From Marinitoga lauensis (GTDB taxonomy: Bacteria; Thermotogota; Thermotogae; Petrotogales; Petrotogaceae): 64,000 nt of DNA. Below the pieces are notes generated by a model. That model worked only from the letters and a program-made list of their open reading frames with translations, made no database searches and had not been told where the DNA came from. The position numbers were made by a program, and so were the translations under genes. This document shows positions 3,254 to 18,716 of this stretch, piece after piece; the first letter of the stretch is position 1, and each line of letters opens with the position of its first letter. Location of the stretch: assembly GCF_004135675.1 (NCBI RefSeq), contig NZ_QHLX01000007.1, forward strand, positions 1-64,000, given 5' to 3'.

Positions 3254-5835
3254 ATGAAGAAAATGGCATTGTTTTTATTTATTATTTTAGTTACTATAAT
3301 ATCTTTTGGAATTGATTACCAACTTATAAAAAGAAATGAATTTATATTGGATAACATAAAAAAATACGCAGAAGAAAATTGGCCTAAAGTGGAAACTAAA
3401 AATTTAATAATCTATTTTGAAAAGGACAATAAATTTTCAAAATACGCCTGGATTGTAGCCCAAAGAGAACAAAAATTTCTTGATGAAATGTTTGATTTTT
3501 TAATATAAGAAATGTGAGGAAAAAAGTGAAGGTATTTATTTTAAAAGATAATGAATTAAGTTCAATAGTGAAGGTAGAAGGGTTAGCAACTCGAGGAGAA
3601 TATATTTATACCACACCATGGGCGTTAAGACATGAACTGGTTCATTTTGTTGAATCACAATTTCCTTATGAAAAGTATAGAGAGAATTATAAAAAAGAAA
3701 AGATTAATTCTGAAATATTGGTGGAAGCAATACCGCAATACTTCTCTACAGAGTATTCAACATCATATTTGAAATTTATTTTTAAATATGGGAAAAAACT
3801 GAATTTTGATAATTCAGAAGATATATTGAATGAAATGGAAGAAAAGAATAATATTTATAGATATGGACCATCATTTTTTGAATATTTATTGAGTAAATAT
3901 TCTATTGAAGAAATAAAAAATTTATATGTGAATTTATTTACCAATGTTGAAGAAATAACAGGTATGACTTTTGATGAATTAATTGTAGATTGGATAAAAT
4001 GGATAAAAAGTTATAAAAATAATGACTTTAAGGGAATATTTGCGTACTATTATTTTTATTATCTTTATTATGATAATTATATAGTTCCAAATATAGAACT
4101 CCAAAATATTTACAATTTTAAAACAGATAAAAAAGTTGCTGTATATGGTAATGATATTATCAGACATATTAATAATTATATAGAAATAATAAATCCTATA
4201 GAAAAAGAATATAAATTATTTAAAGGTAGCTATATTTTAGATGAAAATGAAAAGTATGTAATTACATATGATGTTTTTTCTGATATTTTTGAATTAAAAA
4301 TTTATGATAGGAAAACACAAAAATTATTAGATGTTTTTACACTTGAGAATTATAAAAATAATTTTCCTATGGGTAAAATTATAGATAATTTTATAACTAT
4401 TTCAAATGGAAAATTATTGTTTTTTTATAATTTGCAGGCAAAAAAGATTGAAAAAACTATTCCATATAAAAATATTGAAACGATAAAAAATATAGATGAT
4501 AAAATTATAATTGGAAAATCTGATGGGACATTAGATATAATAAAAAATTATAATATTCAAAACACTATAAAAATTTCAAATTGGTTTATAAAAAAGGTGC
4601 TTTCAACTGAAAAATATTTGATAATAACATCAGGGTTTAATAAAATAACTTTTCTGGATAAAAATACATATGAAATAGTAAAAGTTTTACGTCCTGAAAA
4701 CGATTATATTAGTGCTACAACTTCAAAAAATAATTATCTTTATGTATTATATTTATCAGGAAAAATATTAAAAATAGATCTGAATAATTTTAACATAGTA
4801 AGGTCTATTAATGTAGGTAGAATTGCATATCCTGAAATGGGATATTTAACAGATAAGCTATTTGTTAAATACATAGATGGATATTTAAGATTTTATTCTC
4901 TTGATAATGATATTGAAGAGAATAGAAAATATTATAGAAAGTTCAGAAATTTAAAATCATTTTCCGATTATATAGAAAATGAAGAAAGTTTTTATGAATC
5001 AGATGATGTTATAGTTTCTTATACTAAAATTGGGGATTATGAGATTATAGAAAATGAGTTTTGTGAAGTTACTGTAAAAAAGAACAGTAAAGAAATATTA
5101 AATATCGAATTATATGATTATATTAGCAATATAAAAATAGAAAATGATAAATTATTTATTTCCACAGAAGATGGTGAAATAAGATTATATGATTTAAAAA
5201 ATAAAAAATTACTTTTTAAAAAACAAACATATCAAGTAGCGGGAGATTTTGATGGAGAATATATATATTATGGGAATAAAAACAGAGAAATAGTAAAATA
5301 TGATTATAATACAGGTAAGGAAATAAAAAAATATTATGGGAGTTCTGGATATATAGTAGAAGTAAAAAAAGATTCAGGTAGTAAAATTATAATATCATAT
5401 TATTCAAAAGATAAATTCAGGAATTTTAGTAATACTCCATCTAATAAAATAATTCTTCACTATGATGATAATGGGAATTATTTTAAAAGCATAATTACAA
5501 CATATCCTATAAAGAAAATAAAGGTTTTAAAAGATAAAAATAAGATACTTGTTGAAGATACCGAGTCAAATTTATTTATATATAACTTATTAAATAGTAA
5601 TATGGAAAAAATAATTCATCATCCTTTTAGGAAAATTAAATCGATAGATATAAATAATGAAAAAATAATATTAACAGATGGGAAGTTTATAATAATAAAA
5701 GATTTAAAAAGCAATAAAGAAGTTGGAAAATATTTAATTGATAGTGGTTATATTAATTTTGTAAAATGGATTTCCGAAAATGAATTTATATATATTCAGG
5801 AATATAAAATATATAAAGTTAAATTATATCAATAA
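3254..5835 (+). CDS. Exported metallopeptidase-like protein with beta-propeller-like C-terminal half (one frame break)
   Basis: Two frames (to 3508 and from 3514) join as one protein if one T is added in the T6 run at 3496-3501. The N terminus (MKKMALFLFIILVTIISFGI) is a signal peptide or membrane anchor, so the product probably acts outside the cytoplasm. A gluzincin-like HELVHFVE sits about 30 residues into the second part, with a downstream VEAIPQYFSTEY that could carry the third metal ligand. From about residue 260 the protein becomes a long series of beta-strand repeats (IYDRKTQKL, LYDLKNKKL, KYDYNTGKE), as in WD40/PQQ-like propellers. Substrate unknown. Start 3254 was chosen for its spacing to AGGGTGAT. 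Confidence 0.7.
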
Positions 5836-5844
5836 TGAAATGAG

Positions 5845-6456
5845 GTGATTGAAATATATTTTTCAATATTAAAACCAGTAGAAACAACGATAAAAGTAAA
5901 ACGTTCAGAGTTTATTGGTAATATAAAAAAAGTAGATACAGAAGAAGAAGCGAAAGAATTTATAAAAGAAATATCTTCAAAGTATCGAAATGCTACGCAT
6001 AATTGTTGGGCATATAAAGTGAAAAATAATAAATTTAATTATTCTGATGATGGGGAACCATCTGGAACAGCTGGAAAACCTATATTTGGTATTATTGAAA
6101 AATATAATTTAATAAATGTTGCAATAGTAGTAACTCGATATTTTGGTGGAGTAAAACTCGGAGTAAGAGGATTAATAGATGCATATTCACAATGTGCAGA
6201 AGAAACTGTATTGAAATCCAGGATAGGAAAGTATCTCGATTTAAAAATATATAAGATAAAAACCGATTATTCAAAATATGCAGAAATTGAGAGATTATTA
6301 AAAAGATTAAAAGGATGGAAAATAGTAAATCAGGAATTTATGGCAGATGTAAAGTTTGAAATTGCAATAGAAGAAGATAAAGAAAGTGAAATAATAGAAA
6401 TATTAAAAAATAAAGGGAATATAGAATATTTAAGAACTGAAGAAATTGGAATGTAA
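5845..6456 (+). CDS. yigZ: YigZ/IMPACT family protein
   Basis: A full-length (203-residue) member of the YigZ/IMPACT (UPF0029) family. The N-terminal domain has the family motifs: KRSEFIG, ATHNCWAY, DDGEPSGTAGKP and VVTRYFGGVKLGVRGL. The C-terminal part is the RNA-binding-like ferredoxin fold. The bacterial role is poorly defined, possibly linked to translation. The start is uncertain: GTG 5845 is the in-frame candidate but lies inside the AGGTGATT that would normally be the ribosome-binding site. The last 264 bases are copied at 8519-8782 because an insertion sequence landed at its 3' end. Confidence 0.9.
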   Translation: MIEIYFSILKPVETTIKVKRSEFIGNIKKVDTEEEAKEFIKEISSKYRNATHNCWAYKVKNNKFNYSDDGEPSGTAGKPIFGIIEKYNLINVAIVVTRYFGGVKLGVRGLIDAYSQCAEETVLKSRIGKYLDLKIYKIKTDYSKYAEIERLLKRLKGWKIVNQEFMADVKFEIAIEEDKESEIIEILKNKGNIEYLRTEEIGM

Positions 6457-6590
6457 CATTCTTCCTCTTTATAAATTCCGAACCTGTTTCTGGTTCGGAA
6501 TGATTAAAATTAGTGCCTATGTTATTATTTTTTTCACTCATAGAGGAGGAGTTACATAAAATATTACAGGCTACCATTATTTCCTTTTTT
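6193..6590. repeat. Left copy of 398-bp direct repeat flanking the insertion sequence
   Basis: Identical as far as I compared it with 8519-8916. It begins inside yigZ (TGTGCAGAAG) and runs through the yigZ stop and the downstream hairpin to a T6 run. The two copies directly abut the two ends of the IS element, as expected for a target-site duplication. Confidence 0.92.
6475..6501 (+). terminator. Hairpin after yigZ
   Basis: ATTCCGAACC and GGTTCGGAAT form a perfect 10-bp stem around a 7-base loop, 18 bases after the yigZ stop. It lacks a T-run, so it may be a weak terminator or RNA-stabilising hairpin. The second copy is at 8801-8827, within the duplicated segment. Confidence 0.5.
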
Positions 6591-6604
6591 CCTGCCTTTG
6601 ACAG
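6591..6604 (+). repeat. Left terminal inverted repeat of the IS
   Basis: CCTGCCTTTGACAG. It matches the reverse complement of the right end at 11 of 14 positions, including CCTG and TTTGACA. Confidence 0.8.
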
Positions 6605-6784
6605 CAATTTGGCGATTTTAAGGGAAATGGAACGGTAGAATGCGGGTTTGAGGCGTGTATTTTTCAGGAAGTCGAAAAATTGTGTGGCTAACTTTTGTTA
6701 CAGAGAATTAACTATAATTAGTAATATATTAGTCCTTTTGGTGGTATAATATATATGACAACCACTGAAAGGAGATGTTTTAAA

Positions 6785-8378
6785 ATGTATCCTAAAATAT
6801 CAAAAGTGAAAGGAAAAAGATATTTAAGGATAATGGAAAGCAAAAGAGAAAATGGAAAAGTGAAACAGCATACAGTAATAAATTTTGGAAATATAGATAA
6901 GTATAGTAAAAAAGATATAACAAAACTTGTAGATAGTCTTTTTAAAATATTTGAAATAGATGAATATGAAAAAATAGAAGATGATTTAATGGAAGAAATA
7001 GCAAGAAGAAATTACGGAGCCAAAGTAATAGTAAATAAGATATTTGAAAGATATGAGATGAAAAGATATTTTGAAAGACTGGATAAAGAAATAAAATACA
7101 ATGCAGAAGAAATGTTAAAAATAATGGTGATGAATAGAATAGTAGAACCGAAGAGTAAATTGGGAATATTTAATAATTTAGAGTATTTTGGATATAACAA
7201 AGTGGAAGTTAAAAAGAAAAAGACCTGGAAGAAAAAGATGTAATGTTGCACTGGTTATACAGAACATTGGATATATTAGCAGATAATAAAGAGTCGATAG
7301 AAAAACATATGTATAATCAAAGGATAAGTTTGTTTAATACAACGGTAGATTTAGTATTTTACGATGTAACAACATTAGCGTTTGAAACACAACAAACAAA
7401 TGAAATATTACAAATGGGATATTCAAAGGATAAGAAATTTAATGAGTCGCAAGTAGTATTAGGGATGTCAATAGATCAGGATAGAATGCCAGTTAGTTTT
7501 GATATATATGCAGGAAATACATTTGAAGGGCATACATTTAAAGATTCAATAGAAAAAATGAAAAAAGAATATCAATTAGGAAAAGTAATAGTAGTAGCAG
7601 ATAGAGGAATGATGAGTAAAAAAAATATAGAAGTAGTAGAAAATTCTAATTATGAATTCATAGTAGGAAAATCAATAAAACAGTTAAAAAAAGTAAATAT
7701 ATTTGAAGGAGAATTCATAGAAATAGCAAAAGGAATAAAATATAGAGAAGTAGAATATGAAAATAAAAGATTACTCATAATATATTCAGAAGAAAGAGCT
7801 AAAAAAGACAGAGCAGATAGACTACGATTAATAGAAAAAGCGAAAAAAATGTTAGAAGAAGGAAATATAGATTCCAAAAGTAAAAGAGGAGCGAAAAAAT
7901 ATTTAAAAGAACAGAACAAACAAAATTATATATTGGACATAGAAAAAATAGAAAATGATGAAAAATACGATGGATACTATGGAATAATAACAAACACAAA
8001 ACTATCTCCAAAAGAAATATTAGAACAATATCATACATTATGGAAAGTAGAAGAAACATTCAGAACATTAAAAAATTATCTTGAAACAAGACCGGTATTT
8101 CATTGGACACCGAAAAGAATAAAAGGACATATTGTAATGAGTTTCATATCTTACATAATTCAAAGAACATTAGAATTAGAACTGGAAAAAAATAATATTG
8201 AATACTCTCATGAAAAAATAAGAGAAGCTATAAAAAAATGGAATACTCTGAAATAAGATTAAAAGACAAATTATTTGCATTAAGAGCCAATTTAAACGAT
8301 TTTCAAAAAGCCATATTAAAAACATTAAAAATAGAAAAACCGAAAAAAATGATGGAATTAGATGAATTTAAAAAATAA
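6785..8378 (+). CDS. IS1634 family transposase (two frame breaks)
   Basis: Three frames join into one DDE transposase of about 530 residues if one A is added near 7215 and one near 8237, both in A-rich runs. The N terminus (MYPKISKVKGKRYLRI) and the catalytic blocks are typical of the IS1634/IS4-related group: FYDVTTLAFET (first Asp), VVADRGMMSKKN (second Asp), and a C-terminal YHTLWKVEETFRTLK (Glu in a Y-x-x-x-W-x-x-E-x-x-F-R context). ATG 6785 follows the ribosome-binding site AAAGGAGATG; the upstream ATG 6755 would overlap it. As breaks also occur in essential genes here, this copy may really be intact and active. Confidence 0.88.
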
Positions 8379-8518: not shown

Positions 8519-8782
8519 TGTGCAGAAGAAACTGTATTGAAATCCAGGATAGGAAAGTATCTCGATTTAAAAATATATAAGATAAAAACCGATTATTCAA
8601 AATATGCAGAAATTGAGAGATTATTAAAAAGATTAAAAGGATGGAAAATAGTAAATCAGGAATTTATGGCAGATGTAAAGTTTGAAATTGCAATAGAAGA
8701 AGATAAAGAAAGTGAAATAATAGAAATATTAAAAAATAAAGGGAATATAGAATATTTAAGAACTGAAGAAATTGGAATGTAA
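8519..8782 (+). pseudogene. 3' fragment of yigZ created by target duplication
   Basis: Encodes the last 87 residues of YigZ, identical to the C terminus of the full copy at 5845-6456. It has no ribosome-binding site and no N-terminal IMPACT domain. It is a by-product of IS insertion and should not be counted as a gene. Confidence 0.93.
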
Positions 8783-8916
8783 CATTCTTCCTCTTTATAA
8801 ATTCCGAACCTGTTTCTGGTTCGGAATGATTAAAATTAGTGCCTATGTTATTATTTTTTTCACTCATAGAGGAGGAGTTACATAAAATATTACAGGCTAC
8901 CATTATTTCCTTTTTT
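8519..8916. repeat. Right copy of 398-bp direct repeat
   Basis: The offset to the left copy is a constant 2326 bases. It contains the last 264 bases of yigZ and the following hairpin. Beyond 8916 the sequence continues as the original flank toward the AAA-ATPase gene. Confidence 0.92.
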
Positions 8917-8971: not shown

Positions 8972-10513
8972 TTATCGTTTTTCCATTTTTTCAATAACAT
9001 AATCCACAATATTTCTTTTCTCAGAATTTATGTTTATTCCTATGAGATATATTTCTTTTCCTCTGTATTTTTCATAATATTTCTTCTCTTTTATTTGTTC
9101 TATCGCTTCTTCTGCACTTTTGTCTAATTTTGCCTCAAATATATATACCTTTTCATCGAATTCTAATACTACATCGCTTCTTCCTAAATTTGTCATTTCT
9201 TCTGCTCTTACGTTTAATCCTGCTATTGCCAGTATTGCAAATATTAATGAGTGATAATATCTTTCTTCTTTTTCATGTAGATTATACGGTATTGAACTTA
9301 TTACTTTTTTTATTTCTTCTATTAATCCTTCTATATCATTGTCATATATCTTTTCATATATTATATTTTCTGCTTCATCTAATCCTTTTAATCCATAGTT
9401 TGCTTCCAATATCAATCTTGAGAAACTGCTTTTTACTTCTATGTTTGGATAGTCAAGTATATATTTCTTTTTTAATCCCAATTTTTTTATCCCTTTAAAG
9501 GTTAAATATCCTGCCTGTGTAAAGAATATGTTTGCATTTGCATCTTCTATTTCTCTTGTTGAGAAATCCATTGCACTTACTGTCTCTTTTACTAAGTCTT
9601 CATATGTTATCTTTTTGTTTTTTATGTATTCGTATAGGAATGATGGTGATCCACTTTCAAACCAGTAATTTTTAAATTCCTTTTCTTCAAAGAATTTTAA
9701 TATTGAGAATGGATTATATACATAATGTTCTCCATCAAATGAAAATCCATTATAGTACTCTTTTAATCCTTTTAATAATTCTTCTTCACTTATTCCCATT
9801 TCTTTTGATGTTTCTTTTATGTGCTCTTTGAAATAATGTTCAAGTTCTTCCTGTGTATATCCTAACATCTGTGAGTATTTTTTGTTTAACGATATATCGT
9901 TTAAATTATTTAATGCAGAGAATACTCCTGTTTTTGTGAATTTTGTTATTCCTGTTAAGAATACAAACTTTATATATTCGTCTTTTGATTTGATACTTAC
10001 ATAGAAATCCCTTAATATTTCTCTATATCTTTCTGCTTTTTCTTTGTTATTTATATTATCAAGTATTGGTTTTTCATATTCATCTACCAGTATTACTACC
10101 TTTCCTTTTTTTGATAGTTTTATTATTAACTCATTGAATGCAAATTTATAATCTTCTTCTTCAATATTTACTCCATTTCTTTCTGCTTCTAATTTTAGTA
10201 TTTTTGTTAGACTTTTTTTCATTCTTTCTTCGTTATCTGTTGCTACATCTAATAAATTTATTCTTATTATTGGATACTCTTTAAAATCCCATTTGTCGTA
10301 TATATATGTATCCTTAAATAATTCTTTTTCTCCTTTGAATATATAATATAATGTTGATACTGTTAAACTCTTTCCAAATCTTCTTGGGCGAGATAAAAAT
10401 ATTGGTACTTCTGAACTTATCAGGTCATATATATATTTTGTTTTATCTACATATACATAATTTCCTTCTATTATCTTTTTATAATCCTGTACCCCTATTG
10501 GCAATTTTTTCAT
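8972..10513 (-). CDS. AAA-ATPase-like protein with C-terminal PD-(D/E)XK nuclease-like domain
   Basis: A 513-residue protein of the widespread AAA-ATPase_like (DUF1703) type. The N terminus MKKLPIGVQDYKKI and the Walker A-like SRPRRFGKSLT are characteristic; Walker B is VVILVDEYEKP. The C terminus carries the nuclease-like fold: GRSDVVLEF followed by VYIFEAKLDKS (D...ExK). The family is common and often multicopy in anaerobes; its role is unknown, with mobile or defence functions suspected. Start 10513 is preferred over 10534 because AGGAGGTGG lies just upstream of it. The gene faces the IS insertion site. Confidence 0.85.
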   Translation of the reverse strand: MKKLPIGVQDYKKIIEGNYVYVDKTKYIYDLISSEVPIFLSRPRRFGKSLTVSTLYYIFKGEKELFKDTYIYDKWDFKEYPIIRINLLDVATDNEERMKKSLTKILKLEAERNGVNIEEEDYKFAFNELIIKLSKKGKVVILVDEYEKPILDNINNKEKAERYREILRDFYVSIKSKDEYIKFVFLTGITKFTKTGVFSALNNLNDISLNKKYSQMLGYTQEELEHYFKEHIKETSKEMGISEEELLKGLKEYYNGFSFDGEHYVYNPFSILKFFEEKEFKNYWFESGSPSFLYEYIKNKKITYEDLVKETVSAMDFSTREIEDANANIFFTQAGYLTFKGIKKLGLKKKYILDYPNIEVKSSFSRLILEANYGLKGLDEAENIIYEKIYDNDIEGLIEEIKKVISSIPYNLHEKEERYYHSLIFAILAIAGLNVRAEEMTNLGRSDVVLEFDEKVYIFEAKLDKSAEEAIEQIKEKKYYEKYRGKEIYLIGININSEKRNIVDYVIEKMEKR

Positions 10514-10553
10514 CGATTCCACCTCCTGATTCAATTATATCATATCAATAATA

Positions 10554-10590: not shown

Positions 10591-12539
10591 TTATACATTT
10601 TTCATTTTCACAAAGTTCCTGTAGATTTTACTGTATAATTTTTGATTTTTGACTAATTCATCGTGTTTCCCTTTTTCTATTATTTTTCCTTTATCAATAA
10701 CTATTATTTCATCTGCCAATTCTTTTATGACATTTATTTTATGCGATATTATTATGCCATTTTTATTTTCAATATATTTTTTCAATATTTTGAGATTTTT
10801 TTCTTCTGATATTGCATCAAGACTTGTAAATGGTTCATCTATTATAAATGGTCCATTATGTTCTGGCAATAAAAATCTTGCCATACACACTCTATTCTTT
10901 TCTCCACCAGATATTTTTTTACCTCTTTGACCTAACTTTCTATTTTCCAATTTTTCAAGTTCCAATTCCGATATTATATTTTCATATTTTTCCCGTATGT
11001 AGTAATTCCGTGAAAATAGTACTTCAGCTATAAATGATATATTAATTTTATTGTTTCTAATTTTTTCTGTTATTTCATACAGGATTTTCTCCTTTTCTGT
11101 ATAACAGTCATTAATATTATATATTTCATATATCATTTCTATATATTCATTGTTTAGTGTTTTAATATTCAAAGGCTCTTTCATTTTTTTTATTTCTTCC
11201 ATAAATTTAAATAATTGATTTTTGTAATTTTTCAACTTTTCCATGTATTCATTCTCAGGTAATCCAATTTTTCCAAGAGTCACATTAAAATTCAAATCTT
11301 CATCAAATATTTCCATTTCCTGTGAATAATACTTTATACTGGAATAAATAAAAGGTTTATGTATTTTTCTTACATCAATATTTCCTAATTCCACATATCC
11401 TTTAAGAGGAGATATTTCTCCAAAAATCATTTTTAATATTGTACTTTTTCCTTCTCCAGATAAACCCACAAGACCTATTTTTTTATTTATTTCCAGATTA
11501 AGGTTTTCTATTATCTCCGCATTGGAATATGAAAATGAACAATTGTTTATTTTTATTGTATTATTTTCAGGTAAATATAATTTTGGCTTTTTTAAAAGAT
11601 TATCTTCTATTCGCTTATAAAACATTTCGAATTTATTTATATTAGAATATATTTCCTGAATTGAATCTATAGGTTTAAATACAATAGGAAAGTAGGATAA
11701 TATTGCAATAAATGCTGATAATTCCAACTTCTCTTTCTGTATTTGAAACATTGCAAATATAAAAAATAACGTCAATACTATATTTTTTATGGCGGTTATC
11801 GCTGAATTACCAAATATAGATGCGTATGATGCTTTTTTAAAGTAATTATCTCTTTTTTTAAATAGTTCATATACCATATTTTCAAGTTTTAATATATTAC
11901 CATATCCACTTATACTTCTTTTGTTTTCAATAAACTCTAACACTTTTGGATTTGTTTCAAATACCAGTTCCCGTGCTTTTGTAAAGTTATTTATATGTAT
12001 TTTATTTGTTATCTTTATTATAGTAAATATTAATATATAAGAAACTATAATTAATGCCGGAAAAATCAATGTCCATTTTGCCGAGATTATTAACGCAACT
12101 AAACTTACCATAACACCTATAATCATGGAAAAGTAATTCTTTTTTAACAACATTGATATTTGTTCAGAATTCCCAAAAAGGCCTGTCATATATGCCCGGG
12201 TCCTCTTTGATCAATAATTTTATTATCCTGTCTCGTTATGGAAGACAATAGTTCATATTGTATTCGGCCCTTTAAACTTCTAAATAGATTTTCTAATAAT
12301 AATGATTCTATTATGCATATCAGAGAAATGGTTAATCCTGATACAAGAAAAACAAGAATTAATCCGTTTTCAATATTATTTTTAATAATAGCATCTATTA
12401 TATTCTTTTGAAGTAATGGCAATACTATAGTGAGAATATTCACTATAATTGAAATTAACATTATAAAAAACACATTTTGTTTTATTCTTTTTCCAAATCT
12501 TGATGATACAAATTTAAAAACAATTTTTATTTTACCCAT
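10591..12539 (-). CDS. ABC exporter (fused membrane and ATPase domains), probably exports the modified peptide (one frame break)
   Basis: Two frames (12539-12186 and 12189-10591) join by adding one base near the CCCGGG at 12195, giving about 650 residues. The N-terminal half has about six hydrophobic segments (type IV exporter fold). The C-terminal half is an ATPase: Walker A GLSGEGKST, Q-loop YSQEMEIF, signature ISGGEKNR, Walker B FIIDEPFTSLD, H-loop ISHKI. About 135 residues separate the Q-loop from the signature, roughly twice the usual, so there is a helical insertion. There is no N-terminal C39 peptidase domain. It lies 15 bases downstream of the radical SAM maturase, so export of the peptide product is inferred from context. 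Confidence 0.85.
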
Positions 12540-12554
12540 ATTCAGCTCCTTCCA

Positions 12555-13820
12555 TTAAGAAATACCTAAAATCTTTTTTAGATGTTTTTCTTTTAATTTT
12601 GGAATCAATCTTAAAGATAATTCTGTCATTTTTTGAGAATATATACACCAATATATATTTTTATCATCAGAGGAACCTGTGAGTTTCAAATCGTTATAAC
12701 TACATCCATGAGAACATGTATATCTATTCCAACATTTTTCACATTTTTTAAAACTAAAATTTAAATTTATTTTTTTATTCCTGAATTTATATTTCCCATT
12801 TTATATTCTATTTCTGATGAATATCTATGACAGGGATAAATATCGCCTTTTATATCTATAGAATAGGTTGTTTCACCTAAACCATAACTAAATGCATTTC
12901 TAATTTTAGGCATAAAAATTCTTCTAATATGATCTGTAAATAGCCCAAATGGGAAATCATCATGAACTTTAATATATTCTACAATGTATTCATAGAGATT
13001 TTCAAGTTGAGACAATAATTTAGGATAAGTATTTTTAATATTAGGATTTAAAATATCTGGTGGAACATTAACTTCTCTAAATCCTAATTTAAGCAAATCA
13101 TCATATATCTCTACTAAAGATATATCAAAATCAAAATAGGTACCTATAGCATGTACTTTTTTTATTTTATTTAATAAATAATCTAAATTTTTTACTATTA
13201 AATCATATGAATTTTTTTGATTTATTAAAGGACGTTGAAAATTTTGAATATTCCTTCCACCATCAATACTTACTGCAACACCAAAATTATGTTCATAAAA
13301 AAATCTATTCTTTCTCTACTTAATAAAGTTCCATTTGTAACTATATGAAATTGATAAGATTTTTCTCCTAAATATTTTTTATTAGTATATTCTACAGTAT
13401 TTATAATTTCTTTAAATGCTAATAAAGGTTCTCCACCAAAAAAGATGATATATGCTTCAGCATCTTTAGGAGTCATTTCCATAAATTTATCAATAGCTTT
13501 ATAAGCAATTTCTGATGGCATTATTCCTTTTTCTTTTCCGTAATCTCCATGATTTGCAAAACAATATATACATTTTGCATTACATATATTGGCTATACAT
13601 AAAAACAATCCATAACGTTTATTTTTTGTATTTAAATTTTGATATTCATCAATCTTAGTAATCCTATTTTTATAAAAATTCAATATATTATTTTTTCTTT
13701 TTCATCAACAGAACTATTCAAAGTTTCATATTCATTTTTATCTAAATAAAACAATTGTTTATAATCTGGTAAATATAAAAAGAAATTAAATTTATCTCTA
13801 AAAACATGATATTGAATCAT
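12555..13820 (-). CDS. Radical SAM/SPASM peptide maturase (three frame breaks)
   Basis: Four segments join as one protein of about 420 residues after adding single A residues in runs near 13690, 13290 and 12775. The start MIQYHVFRDKFNFFLYL, after AAAGGAGC, is a short N-terminal region like the peptide-recognition part of RiPP maturases. The cluster motif is CNAKCIYC, followed by IIFFGGEPLLAF (GGE motif) and VSIDGG. The C terminus is a SPASM domain with auxiliary-cluster cysteines: YPCHR, then CEKCWNRYTCSHGC (Cx2Cx5Cx3C), then WC. Enzymes of this type install thioether or related crosslinks in ribosomal peptides. The 45-residue precursor lies just upstream and the exporter just downstream. Confidence 0.88.
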
Positions 13821-13877
13821 TTATTTAGCTCCTTTCTTCTAATAATTCATAAAAGTATATTAAAATATCAAAATATA

Positions 13878-13922
13878 CTATCCACAAGGATAGCATAAAA
13901 GCTATCCCTATTTTTCTATCCC
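13878..13922 (-). promoter_or_regulatory. Competing hairpins between precursor and maturase genes
   Basis: In transcript direction the gap holds GGGATAG, GGGATAGC, GCTATCC and GGATAG in succession. The single GCTATCC can pair with either of the first two (stem GGGATAGC/GCTATCC, 6-base loop) or with the last (ACAA/TTGT loop). No long T-run follows. It may act as an RNA-processing or attenuating structure that lowers maturase expression relative to the precursor; function is inferred. Confidence 0.55.
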
Positions 13923-13928
13923 TGCTTT

Positions 13929-14066
13929 TTAAGTTGTAAATTTTGGCCAGCTATCATCTGAACCACATCCTGCATATTCACAAGATAATATAATTTGTGA
14001 ATCTTTTACTAAATCTTTAAAATAAGGATTAATTAAAGGTTGTTTAATTTCAACTTTGTGTTCCAT
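13929..14066 (-). CDS. RiPP precursor peptide, 45 residues
   Basis: A short ORF starting ATG at 14066 with a strong ribosome-binding site (AAAGGAGGA) and ending TAA at 13929. The N-terminal part (MEHKVEIKQPLINPYFKDLV) is charged and leader-like; the C-terminal part reads SCEYAGCGSDDSWPKFTT, with two Cys and clustered Gly/Ser/Asp/Trp as expected of a modified core. It sits immediately upstream of the radical SAM/SPASM maturase in the same direction. Two Cys residues and nearby Asp residues would fit a thioether-type product (sacti- or ranthipeptide), but I recognise no known family. No double-glycine cleavage site is evident. Confidence 0.8.
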   Translation of the reverse strand: MEHKVEIKQPLINPYFKDLVKDSQIILSCEYAGCGSDDSWPKFTT

Positions 14067-14227: not shown

Positions 14228-14358
14228 TTATTCAGAAACTTCAGTTTGAATATGAAGATTGGTTGAATGAGTAGCATAATCTTTATTATCATCTCCTGCA
14301 AATACCATTGATGAAAATATAATAATTCCTGTGAGTAATAATATAATTATTTTTTCAT
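14228..14358 (-). CDS. Small secreted peptide with signal sequence (probable one-base break)
   Basis: After ribosome-binding site GGAGGTGG, ATG 14358 opens with A-rich codons and meets a stop at once. Adding one A to the A6 run gives MKKIIILLLTGIIIFSSMVF, then AGDDNKDYATHSTNLHIQTEVSE and stop: a classic signal peptide, an A-x-A-like cleavage region, and a hydrophilic tail of about 22 residues. Even uncorrected, the frame is open from ATG 14374 or 14398. It lies upstream of the RiPP operon in the same direction and is divergent from the helical-repeat gene at 14655. A signalling or bacteriocin-like role is possible but not shown. Confidence 0.55.
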
Positions 14359-14510: not shown

Positions 14511-14654
14511 ACGTAGTTCAAATGATGATTTCACGCTAGTTATAATATTGTTCTCATTTTTCTACCAAAATACTCCGTAATTTGGTTGTAATAAAAGAGT
14601 GATGTAAATAAAACAATACAACTTAGTAAAATACTTTTTAAGAAGGTGATATTT

Positions 14655-16075
14655 TTGAATAATTATAGATTAAAAAATATTATATTTATCGTTCAACATG
14701 GTTCGTTTTCAAAAGCTATAATCAATTACTTACTGGATATAATTGATGATGAAAGTTTAAGATATTATTTATTGTTATTAAAATCGATATGGGATTCAAA
14801 ATATAGAAATGCTTTTAAATATGCAAATAAAGTGATTTCAACAACAACAACAATATTGAGAGAACTTGCAAGATTTGAAAAGATATGGATATTATCTTTG
14901 AAAAAAAGACAAAATAATATGATTGAAGAAATTAATATACTCAAAAACAATTTATCGTCTCTTCCTGATTATGCAAGAAATTTAATAATTCCAGGATTAA
15001 AACTTTTGGGAATAAGATTAGATATAGATGAAAACTTGAGAATTTATAGTCAAAAATACGAAGGATATAAAAATCAACAATCAATAATAAAATATTCAGA
15101 AGCAAGAAAAAAATAAAAAAAGAGAATTACAATAAAGCATACGAATTATTTATAGAAGGATACTTTCTTGCAAAAGAGTTTCCTCATCCTACAATGATTT
15201 GTTCTGGATTAAATAATGCTGCATGGTGGATAAGAAATGAAGATAAGAAAAGAGCTTTAATTACAATTAATTTACTTGAATATTATATTGGTTATTATTT
15301 TGAAGATTTGAAATATATATATAACTGGTTGGATACAATTTTTGAAGTCAGAAGAATTAATAATGATCCAGGGATTTCTGAAGTATATAATATAGTAAAT
15401 GGCTTAAAAGAGTTTTTTAATGAAATAAATATAGATAAGAAATTTAATAGAAGTTTTTATTCAGAAGAATTTAAAAGAGAAACAAAAAAGATATTCAAAG
15501 AAAATATTGTTAAATTTAAAAATCAAAAAGAAACAAAAATACCGGAATTATTTTTTGCAACATATACAGCATTAATAGAAAAACCACATTTTACAAAAAT
15601 TCATGTTTTAAGATTGATTTTTGAAGGAAATAAAGATAAAATCATTAAATACTTCTCAAGGGATTATGAGAAGATGTATTTTTTTAACTTGATGCTTTCA
15701 GATTTTGACGTGAAAGAAGTTGAAAAAAGATTATTGAATCCAGAAGATTTTAAAATTGCTGAACATAATATTTCAGCATTTTTTATTGGAAGAAAAAAAC
15801 TCATCATTGAGCTTTTTAAAAAGGTGAAGAATTTTAAGGAATTAGTTCTTCATTATTTTGAGCTTAATGATAAGGAAATGAGAATATTTGATGTGTTTTT
15901 GAGAAATTGTGTTCGATATGATATTAAATGGCATATTACACCTTATCCTGAAGGTAAAATCAAAGATTTTGCAATAAAATATGGTCCTGGTCAAAAAAGA
16001 GTTGCTTTAGGTTATTACTCTTTTGAAGATGATGAAAGAGCTTTTCTTGACTCTATTATTGAGAAGTTTATATGA
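14655..16075 (+). CDS. Helical-repeat (TPR-like) protein of unknown function (one frame break)
   Basis: Two frames join by one added A in the A7 run near 15110, giving about 473 residues, almost wholly helical. The segment NYNKAYELFIEGYFLAKEF resembles a TPR helix pair, and similar periodic helices continue to about residue 300. I see no helix-turn-helix, signal peptide or catalytic motif. TTG 14655 is chosen because GAAGGTGAT precedes it. It is transcribed away from the small secreted peptide and the RiPP operon. By analogy with TPR peptide receptors it could sense a peptide, but without a DNA-binding domain this is speculation. Confidence 0.6.
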
Positions 16076-16125: not shown

Positions 16126-18716
16126 TTATCCTTTTACAGAACCCTGGGTTAATCCACCAACTAAGTATTTTTGCATTGATAAGAATAGTAATACCATTGG
16201 AACTGCTCCTAACAATGCTGCAGCTGTAAATAATCCCCATTCCGTTTCAAACGGACCTGATGTGAATGTTTGTAAACCAACAGCATATGTGAAGTTTTGT
16301 TCACTTGATAATACAATTCTTGCAAGAACAAATTCATTAAATGTGCCCATGAAAGATAATATAGTTACAACAGCTAAAATAGGTGATGCTAATGGTAGCA
16401 CAATTAGCCAGAATGTCTGAAATCTTGTTGCGCCATCAATCATAGCGGATTCTTCCAGAGAGTCTGGTATTGTGTCATAATATCCTTTGATGAGCCACAT
16501 ATTAAAAGAAACACCACCCAAGTATACAAAAATCAATCCGGATAATGTATCCAATCCAATAAAGCCAAAGTAATCTCCCATAAATTTAAGCATTCCATAT
16601 AATGCAACCATGTACATTATTGCAGGGAACATTTGAATAAGCATTAAATATAGTAAGCCTTCTTTTCTTCCAACAAATCTCATTCTACTGAATGGATATG
16701 CTGCAACAGCTGTTATCATCACTGTTAAAATGGAAGTTAAGCCTGCAACAATAATAGAATTTAACAACCATCTTAAGAAAGGTTTTCTTTGCTTTGGATT
16801 CCAATTATCCAAAAGATCATATATATTTTTATCAATATTTCTTAAATCAGATTTTAATGTTTTGTATTTTATAGAATCTGCCAGATCTGAAACAATTCTT
16901 GAAGCCCTTGAAAGATTAGCTTTGGCTGGGCCATATTGCGAATTGTATATTGATGAAATTTTCATTACCGGTACAATGTCAGCAGTATAACCACCATAAT
17001 TAATTTTTAAATAATCATATGAGTTGTTTTCAAGTTTTTCGAGATTTGGGTTTATTTCAGATATTATTTTTTCAAAAGAAGCTTTACTTTTCAAAAATTT
17101 ATCATTAGCTTCTTCAATATTTTTTCTTAATGTAAATATGTTTAGATCTTTTTTAGAAGGTTTATAAAATTCAAATAATTTAGAACTTAGTATATCTGAG
17201 AAATATTCTGATTCATAATAATTAGAAATAGGTATTTGAGCTATGCTTTTTATAATAGCAAATTCACCATATTTTTTTAATTTTTTAAAGTTTTCCAGAG
17301 TAGATTTGTTTTTGCTATATAATTTATTGTATTTTTCCTGGGTTGTTCCTAGTCTGGTATTTAGTTGGTTAAGGGTATTTTGATAATTTTCAAGTTTTTC
17401 AAGATTTGTTTTTAGATTTAAAGTTAGAGAGTTTAATGTGTTTAATGTTGTTTTTACACTTTTTATTGTTTCAACAAGAGTTTTATATGCTGGTGATACA
17501 TATTCAAGATCTGGGTTTATATATTTTAGGTTATTTTTTAACCATACAAATGATTTTGTATAAGTTTCAATAGCATTTTTATAATTTTCGAAATCAGCAA
17601 GGCTTTCCATATTTTTATTTATTTCTAAAAATGTATCTGAAATATAGTTTATATCATTATATAGAGCTATAACATTACTATTATTAATTTGTTGATTTTT
17701 ATATTTTTTAAATATATTAACTGCAGATTCTATTTTTAAGCTATCTGGTGCATAAATTTCTAGCAATGAAGATAAATCATTATTATACTTAACTATTAAT
17801 GATTCAATTTTAGATATATTATTTTTTGTAATAGAAATATTTTTCTGTATATCTTTTATTTCACTTTCATATGAATTTATGTTTTTGAGTTCTTTTCCAA
17901 GCATTTCTTCTTCTAAATTTTCAAAATATGAATCAATTTTTTTGCATTTGATAAAATATCGTTCCATTTATCAGTAAGTTTTTTTACTTCAGGAGCTAAA
18001 TTTAAAATATTTTCGTTGTTTTCTATTTTTAACCATTTTTTATATGTTTTTATTTTCCATAAAATATATTTAGGTGATGTAGAAAATATTGTTGATAATG
18101 TATTTTGGTAATATTTTTCGTTTTTTGCTGTTTTGGGGATTTTATTTAACATGATCAATATTTCATTTCTTAATTTATAATAATCACTAATTAAATTTTT
18201 TAAATTGTTTATTTCTACTGATATTTTCTCTATAGTAACATTTGAAGTTATAGATTTTTCAATCTCTTCTAAATTTTTTAATTCGGATACTCTTGATTTA
18301 TTTATATCCTTGATAATGTCTTTTTTGTTAATTTCTAAAGAAGATAATAGATTTTTAAAATTGGAATCAATTTCACTTAAGTATGTATTTGTTTGTGAAA
18401 TATAAGTGTTAAAATCAGATAATTCACTATTTAATTTTTTATTAGCTTCTTCCAGACTTAGTTGAGAATTTTTCCCTATAAAATGTGCAGTTCCGTTTAT
18501 ATCCTTTATTAATTCTGGAACAGTAGCTCTTGGAAATAATAGATCTCTATAATAATTTAAGGTAATTCTCGATGAGAAAAGCTTTGGTGAGAAAGCAGCA
18601 TTATCTCTTCTTATGGATGTAGTTACAACCCATACTAAAGGGAATAGAACGAGTACAATAACAATAATTAAAAATATATGTCTTAATATATAATTTTTCT
18701 TTTGTATCATAGCCAT
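16126..18716 (-). CDS. malG: Maltose/maltodextrin ABC permease MalG with giant extracytoplasmic insertion (one frame break)
   Basis: Two frames overlap at 17913-17967 and join by one added T/A at the run near 17940, giving about 863 residues; E. coli MalG has about 296. After the first membrane segment (residues about 13-33) comes a segment of about 600 residues rich in Lys, Glu, Asn and Leu heptads, predicted extracytoplasmic coiled coil. The last 215 residues are the normal permease core with EAA loop EESAMIDGATRFQTF. Extended MalG proteins are known from Thermotoga, as I recall. Its ATG overlaps the malF TAA by one base, so the two are translationally coupled. No ATPase or binding-protein gene adjoins. 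Confidence 0.88.

What the first reader, a model, noticed from the sequence alone, without database searches (positions are those of the whole stretch)
10591..14066. RiPP-type locus: 45-residue two-Cys precursor, radical SAM/SPASM maturase and ABC exporter
A short precursor (ATG 14066) with a strong ribosome-binding site is followed by a radical SAM/SPASM enzyme (Cx3Cx2C at the start, Cx2Cx5Cx3C near the end) and an ABC exporter, all in one direction. The precursor core, SCEYAGCGSDDSWPKFTT, has two Cys plus Asp/Ser/Trp and fits no RiPP family I recognise. The gene order is diagnostic of a ribosomally made, radical-SAM-modified peptide; the crosslink type is unknown. Maturase and exporter are frame-broken in the sequence as given, so automated tools would probably miss the cluster.
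Basis: partly seen in the sequence, partly recalled or inferred. Interest (0 to 1): 0.82.

Follow-up and report, generated by a model that had tools for sequence, protein, structure and literature searches.

The report
Conserved two-cysteine modified-peptide gene cassette
A tiny peptide gene, an iron-sulfur enzyme that probably ties a ring in the peptide, and a dedicated pump form a small cassette found almost unchanged in unrelated bacteria, here sitting behind what looks like a secreted-peptide signalling switch.

Summary
The finding is real: precursor, radical SAM/SPASM maturase and ABC exporter lie on the minus strand as described. The frame breaks match an assembly-wide indel background (about 1.3-1.4 per coding kb), and a same-genus genome, G003, has the cassette intact. 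Over four lineages the 13-residue core keeps C-x-Y-x-G-C-G-x-x-D-x-W-P while the leader drifts: an apparently undescribed RiPP precursor family. The maturase is nearest the PapB/nif11/SCIFF group but passes no NCBIfam cut-off listed. The Asp four residues after the second Cys (CX3D, the freyrasin/PapB motif) never changes while its neighbour does, so I infer one Cys-Asp thioether ring (unproven). Upstream lie a divergent TPR-like regulator gene and a Sec-type 43-residue peptide. This pair recurs in the phylum (26 of 33 regulators examined, against 1 of 167 control ORFs) and lies near many SPASM genes, which suggests RRNPP-like quorum control; nothing functional was tested. Caveats: the window maturase carries two substitutions at invariant residues; the adjacent regulator lacks the HTH and is frame-broken in both genomes.

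The parts
14646..16075 (+). regulator-like gene, divergent, TPR-like family, frame-broken, without the HTH segment found in other members
   Evidence: ORFs 14646-15116 and 15194-16075; profile A1 matches at 14661-15131, 15098-15445, 15425-16072; HTH segment absent by comparison with A6
14228..14358 (-). 43-residue Sec-type peptide, candidate pheromone precursor, one frame break at its start in this assembly
   Evidence: intact homologue in G003 and similar peptides next to most regulators examined
13929..14066 (-). 45-aa RiPP precursor, core CEYAGCGSDDSWPKFTT
   Evidence: 89% identical in G003; core conserved in four lineages
13884..13911 (-). hairpin between precursor and maturase (attenuator-like)
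   Evidence: z -1.86 in the window (10 of 200 shuffles as good), -2.34 in G003, -6.13 in L067, -8.10 in L158; no room for one in G928
12555..13820 (-). radical SAM/SPASM maturase, about 422 aa, RRE-like N-terminus, three frame breaks in this assembly
   Evidence: intact 97% identical copy in G003; AlphaFold2 model of the Butyrivibrio relative
10591..12539 (-). ABC exporter without a C39 peptidase match, with about 90 extra residues inside the ATPase domain, one frame break in this assembly

Best explanation
This is a three-gene RiPP cassette. The 45-residue precursor is bound through its leader by the N-terminal RRE-like domain of the SPASM maturase. The maturase uses SAM radical chemistry and two auxiliary clusters to make one thioether between the second core Cys and the Asp four residues on (CX3D, as PapB does in freyrasin); the first Cys, in CxYxG, either stays free or takes part in a second, unknown linkage. 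The ABC exporter moves the product out, and an unlinked protease must remove the leader, since the exporter shows no peptidase domain. A hairpin after the precursor gene would let the cell make more precursor than enzyme. In the window's phylum the cassette sits behind a divergent TPR-like regulator and a Sec-type peptide, which I take to be a quorum-type switch. Shown: the genes, their order, the conservation, family placement and the recurrent regulator/peptide pairing. Inferred: the crosslink, leader binding, export and quorum control.
For: Same order precursor-maturase-exporter in G003, Butyrivibrio L067, G838 and G928. Core invariant C1 Y3 G5 C6 G7 D10 W12 P13 in four lineages, with position 9 being D, S, A or D. 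PapB is the best NCBIfam model for the three intact maturases scanned (220.7, 225.8, 229.6 bits), and two Paenibacillus controls score 434.2 and 431.2. CteB is the best PDB match by sequence (1.5e-48) and by fold (2.8e-23). Model pLDDT 88.2 with a beta3-alpha2 N-terminus. Seven SPASM-region Cys invariant in the 44 sequences of A7. Regulator/peptide: 15 of 33 against 1 of 167 control ORFs with a strict filter; 26 of 33 against 1 of 167 with the basic-pair filter, 27 of 33 against 17 of 167 without it. 15 of 25 SPASM-type hits in six genomes lie within 5 kb of a listed regulator match, circular-shift mean 0.86, 0 of 20,000 shifts as high. PapB acts on CX3D (PMC9413430, abstract and passages).
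Against: PapB cut-off of 340 bits not reached; the tree leaves the backbone open and gives no sign of joining this clade to PapB, its nearest row being L126 on a long branch. Only one of the two Cys has a conserved acidic partner at +4. The window maturase has R226I and C313Y at positions invariant in relatives, so this strain's copy may be dead. The regulator next to the cassette is frame-broken in the window and in both G003 copies, and the window's lacks the HTH. G838 and G928 have other genes upstream (a BlaI/BlaR1-type pair in G838), and in L067 the contig ends about 190 bases before the precursor, so the regulator pairing with this cassette is seen only in the window's genus. Ten of 25 SPASM-type hits are not near a listed regulator. 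The hairpin is weak in the window (z -1.86) and absent in G928, where 15 bases separate precursor stop and next start.
Confidence: 0.58

Rival explanations
1. A RiPP of the same cassette but with another linkage: an alpha-carbon (sacti) thioether, or a carbon-carbon or Cys-Tyr/Trp link using the equally invariant Tyr3, Gly5 or Trp12.
For: Tyr3, Gly5, Trp12 and Pro13 are as invariant as Asp10; the maturase passes no NCBIfam cut-off among the families listed.
Against: Best-scoring models are PapB, nif11 and SCIFF; the sactipeptide RumMC and cyclophane YhhB models score 75-84 bits where listed; the nearest solved enzyme is CteB.
Confidence: 0.33
2. The short ORF is an attenuator or leader peptide that regulates the maturase operon by Cys/Trp availability, not a substrate.
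For: A hairpin follows the ORF in three lineages; Cys and Trp codons are conserved.
Against: Core residues other than Cys/Trp (Y, G, G, D, P) are conserved at protein level, with several written in different codons; G928 has no room for a hairpin; the operon encodes a peptide-maturase-type enzyme and an exporter.
Confidence: 0.03
3. In the sequenced strain the locus is a decaying pseudogene cluster with no product.
For: Frame breaks plus two substitutions at invariant residues, one an SPASM-region Cys.
Against: The frame-break rate is that of the genome background; codon differences of the maturase against G003 are mostly synonymous (35 against 12) and the precursor core is identical.
Confidence: 0.25
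4. The upstream regulator and secreted peptide are a separate module unrelated to the RiPP genes (for example a surface or toxin-like peptide with its own regulator).
For: Regulator copies also occur far from the SPASM-type hits, for example in G007 and several in G002 and G003.
Against: The clustering with SPASM genes is far above chance, and in G003 and the window the peptide and RiPP genes point the same way.
Confidence: 0.3

Closest known systems
PapA/PapB (freyrasin), ranthipeptides
   Same: PapB is the best-scoring maturase model; the core has an invariant CX3D; SPASM enzyme
   Different: 220-230 bits against a cut-off of 340; one CX3D rather than six; extra invariant CxYxG and WP; separate clade in the tree
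SCIFF/CteB (thermocellin)
   Same: Nearest solved structure by sequence and fold; thioether chemistry in the family
   Different: Two Cys in the core, not six in 45 residues; SCIFF model 172-199 bits against 425
TM1315-TM1319 locus of Thermotoga maritima (TM1316 peptide)
   Same: From recall: a small Cys peptide with radical SAM enzyme and ABC transporter, highly transcribed in stationary phase; only the paper's title was seen, in a reference list
   Different: No sequence comparison could be made here; the paper was not held
Rgg/SHP-controlled RaS-RiPPs of streptococci
   Same: A secreted peptide and an intracellular peptide-binding regulator next to radical SAM RiPP operons (PMC12445099, abstract and passages)
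   Different: No sequence link to the regulators here was seen; HTH in the middle of the protein or missing; peptide with a Sec-type signal; another phylum
RRNPP quorum-sensing families
   Same: Small Sec-type propeptide adjacent to a TPR-like protein (criteria from PMC10075063, passages)
   Different: TPR support is weak, the receptor is mostly longer (28 of 33 over 500 aa), the HTH is not N-terminal where present, and the phylum is not Bacillota

Membership tests
RiPP (general) | Precursor peptide beside its modifying enzyme, core conserved | tested here: met
   Four lineages, same order, core conserved
RiPP (general) | Peptide is made, modified and released | not testable with these tools
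   Needs mass spectrometry
PapB ranthipeptide maturase (NF047865) | Score at or above the 340-bit cut-off | tested here: not met
   220.7, 225.8, 229.6 bits; controls L113 and L122 434.2 and 431.2
PapB ranthipeptide maturase (NF047865) | CX3D/E in the core | tested here: met
   Asp at second Cys +4 in four lineages
PapB ranthipeptide maturase (NF047865) | Cys sulfur to beta-carbon thioether | not testable with these tools
   Needs MS/NMR
SCIFF maturase (TIGR03974) | 425-bit cut-off and a six-Cys substrate | tested here: not met
   172.4-199.4 bits for the three intact maturases; two Cys in the core
Nif11-type maturase (TIGR04064) | 518.7-bit cut-off | tested here: not met
   196.8-212.6 bits
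Anaerobic sulfatase maturase (TIGR03942) | 349-bit cut-off | tested here: not met
   87.5-101.3 bits
Radical SAM/SPASM | CX3CX2C and seven SPASM-region Cys | tested here: met
   Invariant in the 44 sequences of A7 and present in G003; one SPASM-region Cys reads Tyr in the window; Pfam SPASM just under its cut-off (21.2 against 21.5 in G003)
RRE-containing maturase | N-terminal winged-helix RRE | tested here: inconclusive
   beta3-alpha2 N-terminus in the model; match to CteB over 440 alignment columns; leader binding not tested
RRNPP | Propeptide 10-100 aa, adjacent to receptor | tested here: met
   26 of 33 regulators against 1 of 167 control ORFs with the basic-pair filter; a stricter filter gives 15 of 33
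RRNPP | Propeptide secreted by Sec | tested here: inconclusive
   Own hydropathy filter, not SignalP
RRNPP | Receptor of 250-500 aa | tested here: inconclusive
   5 of 33 within, 28 longer, range 455-628 aa; the window's gene spans 1430 bases, about 476 codons
RRNPP | TPR repeats in receptor | tested here: inconclusive
   Pfam TPR_12 E 0.0052 and 0.13 in two of eight scanned, below cut-off; PDB profile match to RPN6 E 0.023
RRNPP | Peptide binds receptor and changes transcription | not testable with these tools
   Needs binding and expression assays

The most novel reading that the evidence does not exclude
The phylum of the window carries its own large family of intracellular pheromone receptors: TPR-like proteins with an HTH in the middle (lost in some copies), each divergently paired with a Sec-exported 40-50-residue peptide with variable tail, present in several copies per genome and switching on diverse radical-SAM RiPPs. 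One of these RiPPs is a mobile cassette shared with Clostridia whose product is a small CX3D-bridged ring with an additional CxYxG element, possibly a second unknown linkage. This would be RRNPP-type control of RiPPs outside Bacillota and a new ranthipeptide-like class.
Probability: 0.38. Interest if true: 0.8.

Novelty: new variant of a known kind. Interest (0 to 1): 0.62.

Why it matters
A 13-residue core kept across distant genomes, with one crosslink motif already understood in PapB, gives a minimal and readily testable substrate for ranthipeptide-type enzymes. If the regulator/peptide pair is a quorum switch, it would bring peptide quorum sensing of the RRNPP type to a phylum where my two paper searches in an open-licence library found no report, and would give a handle on what the Cys-rich radical-SAM peptides of this phylum, such as TM1316 (recall), are for.

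Tried and rejected
Rejected: sulfatase-maturase reading. Rejected as main cause of the frame breaks: pseudogenisation, although the two substitutions keep it open for this strain.

Led nowhere: viral-contig scans with the single maturase (6 stretches, no relative), alignment A3 (8 weak hits, best E 1e-6) and regulator alignment A6 (9 stretches, no relative); exact core DNA pattern in viral contigs (0); precursor in plasmids (none); maturase in plasmids and phages (160 and 60 records, all under 60% identity; the 20 rows listed of each are at most 32%); regulator in plasmids and phages (none at 1e-3). In drawn samples at E <= 1e-60 or 1e-70 close maturases were rare: 1 of 397 (family of G061), 2 of 391 (class), 2 of 130 (family of G838), 1 of 398 (phylum of G061); each count includes the centre genome, and at most four candidates a genome were scored in the rows shown. 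Among 61 genomes near the window, the window's and G003 have the precursor clearly; seven others gave matches of E 0.187-0.8. The fold of the window's regulator piece was useless (pLDDT 44.4).

Rows dropped: in the tree, L116 and L139 (internal stop) and five rows under 400 aa, leaving 73 of 80 loci plus 8 others. In one search the regulator list was the printed part, which was cut, so 15 of 25 is a lower bound; the 25 include weak hits (to E 1e-3). Control ORFs were every ORF of 300 aa or more in 20 stretches of G003 that lay at least 750 bases from an end, some perhaps spurious; the 33 regulators were those of full length in fetched loci, not a random draw, and two had almost no upstream sequence. 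L051 has a peptide by the strict filter but is a miss. Three of 21 rows were paralogues of a multi-copy gene; one search recounts without them.
Full report
What is there. On the minus strand the window holds a 45-codon ORF (ATG 14066), a radical SAM/SPASM gene in several frames (13820-12555) and an ABC exporter gene in two frames (12539-10591). Two further elements lie upstream: a short Sec-type peptide on the same strand (14358-14228, frame-broken at its start) and a divergent gene on the plus strand (14646-16075, frame-broken).

Why the frames are broken. A same-genus genome, G003, has the precursor (89% identical), a 422-aa maturase (97%) and a 649-aa exporter, all unbroken. I compared 20 stretches of 20 kb from each genome, plus the window. 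Over 48,622 aligned columns inside long G003 ORFs, the window's genome shows 56 frameshifting deletions and 13 frameshifting insertions, about 1.4 per kb, against 16 in-frame indels. Three of the 21 aligned rows were paralogues of a multi-copy gene; without them it is 51 and 8 in 44,109 columns, 1.34 per kb. Four breaks in about 3.4 kb of cassette genes is that same rate. So the breaks are best read as assembly error. Two things remain against a live copy in this strain: Arg226 reads Ile and Cys313, an SPASM-region Cys, reads Tyr. Both residues are invariant in the three-member family alignment and, at the matching positions, in the 44 sequences of A7.

Relatives. A scan of genome contigs with an alignment of eight SPASM maturases found Butyrivibrio sp. 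INlla18 (L067) at 41% identity and E 3e-101; the next best was E 1e-48. Directly upstream of it lies a 41-residue ORF with core CYYEGCGADDGWP, and downstream an exporter of 635 aa. Searches of drawn genome samples gave two more: G838 (2 of 391 genomes counting G061), core CDYAGCGASDSWP, and G928 (2 of 130 counting G838), core CYYAGCGVADSWP; both have the same gene order. In four lineages core positions C1, Y3, G5, C6, G7, D10, W12 and P13 are invariant. Pairwise identity is 9-10 of 13 in the core and 3-9 of 19 in the leader, which aligns without gaps up to the first Cys; one leader Lys is invariant. The four precursors have no Pfam or NCBIfam match over a cut-off; the best chance-level E was 0.024. 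In G928 the cassette follows what I recognise by eye as rpoA in a ribosomal operon, and in G838 it follows a BlaI-type repressor and a BlaR1-type M56 protein, so it looks like a movable unit that different regulators have taken over.

The enzyme. For the three intact maturases scanned, the best NCBIfam model is PapB (220.7, 225.8 and 229.6 bits) and the 340-bit cut-off is missed; two Paenibacillus proteins scanned as controls score 434.2 and 431.2. SCIFF, nif11 and sulfatase-maturase cut-offs are missed by more. The PDB sequence profile puts CteB first (E 1.5e-48). An AlphaFold2 model of the Butyrivibrio enzyme on 44 sequences (pLDDT 88.2, pTM 0.89) begins with three strands and two helices, as an RRE would, and Foldseek again puts CteB first (E 2.8e-23). 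An ML tree of 81 rows gives the family one clade (100/99); two PapB rows and three SCIFF rows fall in other supported groups, but the backbone is open and many branches are long, so the wider placing is unsure.

The crosslink. The second Cys is followed by Asp at +4 in every lineage found, whereas +3 is Asp, Ser, Ala or Asp. PapB joins Cys to the Asp beta carbon in CX3D and tolerates zero to six intervening residues in vitro (PMC9413430, abstract and passages); a review, read in passages, describes PapB as strict for CX3D (PMC8172795). I therefore infer one Cys6-Asp10 thioether. The first Cys has Gly at +4, so its fate is open. This is inference from motif and family, not a result.

Export and expression. 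The G003 exporter has membrane and ATPase domains but no C39 peptidase match, so leader removal is left to another protease. Its ATPase match covers 226 residues for a 137-position model, and the extra segment is shared by the three exporters aligned. A hairpin sits between precursor and maturase in the window (z -1.86), G003 (-2.34), L067 (-6.13) and L158 (-8.10); in G928 only 15 bases separate the two ORFs.

The upstream pair. The divergent gene belongs to a family with no Pfam match over a cut-off in the members scanned. A profile finds it in 59 of 103 genomes of the window's phylum at E <= 1e-8, with up to 18 match pieces in one genome, a gene sometimes giving two pieces. Members have helical, TPR-like N-termini (PDB profile to RPN6, E 0.023). 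Several have an XRE-type HTH near residues 300-360 (Pfam HTH_3 E 2.5e-4, 21.4 bits against 23, in L182; weaker HTH hits in three more of eight scanned; HipB E 0.036); it is missing from the window's copy and some others. Under a strict filter 15 of 33 full-length members have a divergent Sec-type peptide ORF within 700 bp, against 1 of 167 control ORFs. Under a looser filter it is 27 of 33 against 17 of 167, and asking in addition for a basic pair near the start gives 26 of 33 against 1 of 167. In six genomes of one or two contigs 15 of 25 SPASM-type hits lie within 5 kb of a listed regulator match; circular shifts average 0.86 and none of 20,000 reaches 15. Ten of 25 do not, including the three in G007 and the three in G023 by the listed matches. 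Neighbouring hits are not independent, so the shift test overstates the number of separate events.

What the pair may be. Of the five RRNPP criteria listed in PMC10075063 (passages), propeptide size and adjacency are met; secretion and TPRs are supported only by weak means; receptor length (250-500 aa) holds for 5 of 33 members, the rest being longer, though the window's gene would be about 476 codons. Streptococcal Rgg/SHP systems likewise sit in front of radical-SAM RiPP operons (PMC12445099, abstract and passages). My searches for RRNPP with Thermotog- (one paper, on phage-plasmids) and for Thermotoga with quorum sensing, peptide and tetratricopeptide (five listed, none on this by title and start of abstract) found no report. 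Against a role at this very locus: the regulator is frame-broken here and in both G003 copies at about the same place, and the pairing with this cassette is seen only in the window's genus: G838 and G928 have other neighbours and the Butyrivibrio contig ends just upstream.

Prior art. A 2014 survey lists one sactipeptide-type cluster in nine Thermotogae strains, in Thermosipho melanesiensis (PMC4289311, passages). TM1316 of Thermotoga maritima was seen only as a title in a reference list; what I say of it otherwise is recall. No paper holding Marinitoga with radical SAM and peptide was found (0).

Verdict. A real, conserved RiPP cassette for which I found no family name: new variant of a known kind. 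I put 0.95 on RiPP, about 0.6 on a Cys-Asp thioether given that, and about 0.5 on quorum-type control by the upstream pair in general.

Noticed in passing
window 6193-6492 and 8519-8818: A 300-nt exact direct repeat flanks transposase-like ORFs (6755-8256) and duplicates the end of the gene at 5845-6456; insertion-linked duplication or assembly artefact.
   Followed up: partly
L049:1-4652 and 4802-6808 (G003): A second cluster (345-aa radical SAM/SPASM, 109-aa small protein, two ABC proteins) beside a near-identical duplicate of the same regulator and secreted peptide.
   Followed up: no
whole assembly G000: About 1.3-1.4 frameshifting indels per kb of aligned coding DNA against G003, mostly deletions; gene calls from this assembly are unreliable.
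   Followed up: yes
L050:2801-3010 (-), near maturase 4364-5593: A 69-aa Cys/Asp-rich peptide with several CX3D spacings by eye, downstream of another PapB-like maturase (262 bits, cut-off 340).
   Followed up: no
L051:4774-6989: A one-Cys 47-aa peptide followed by a GNAT acetyltransferase and an SPASM maturase, with the divergent regulator/peptide pair upstream.
   Followed up: no
window 14646-15116; L051, L066, L159, L160, L164, L172, L173: A run of four to ten Thr of variable length in the regulator in copies from the window's genus; the other rows of A6 have at most two in a row.
   Followed up: partly
window 16126-18716: Sugar-type ABC permease ORFs (by eye) with a long coiled-coil-like stretch between the first and last membrane parts, split over two ORFs.
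   Followed up: no
window 8972-10534: AAA-ATPase-like/PDDEXK_9 gene with relatives of 81-84% DNA identity in three of the 20 G003 stretches, so a multi-copy family.
   Followed up: no
L189:3562-5349 (G838): Penicillinase-repressor-type regulator and BlaR1-type M56 protein directly upstream of the same RiPP cassette.
   Followed up: partly
L126:5466 (+): Beside the maturase that falls next to this clade in the tree, a 98-aa Cys-containing ORF that looks to me like it has a Nif11-type leader.
   Followed up: no
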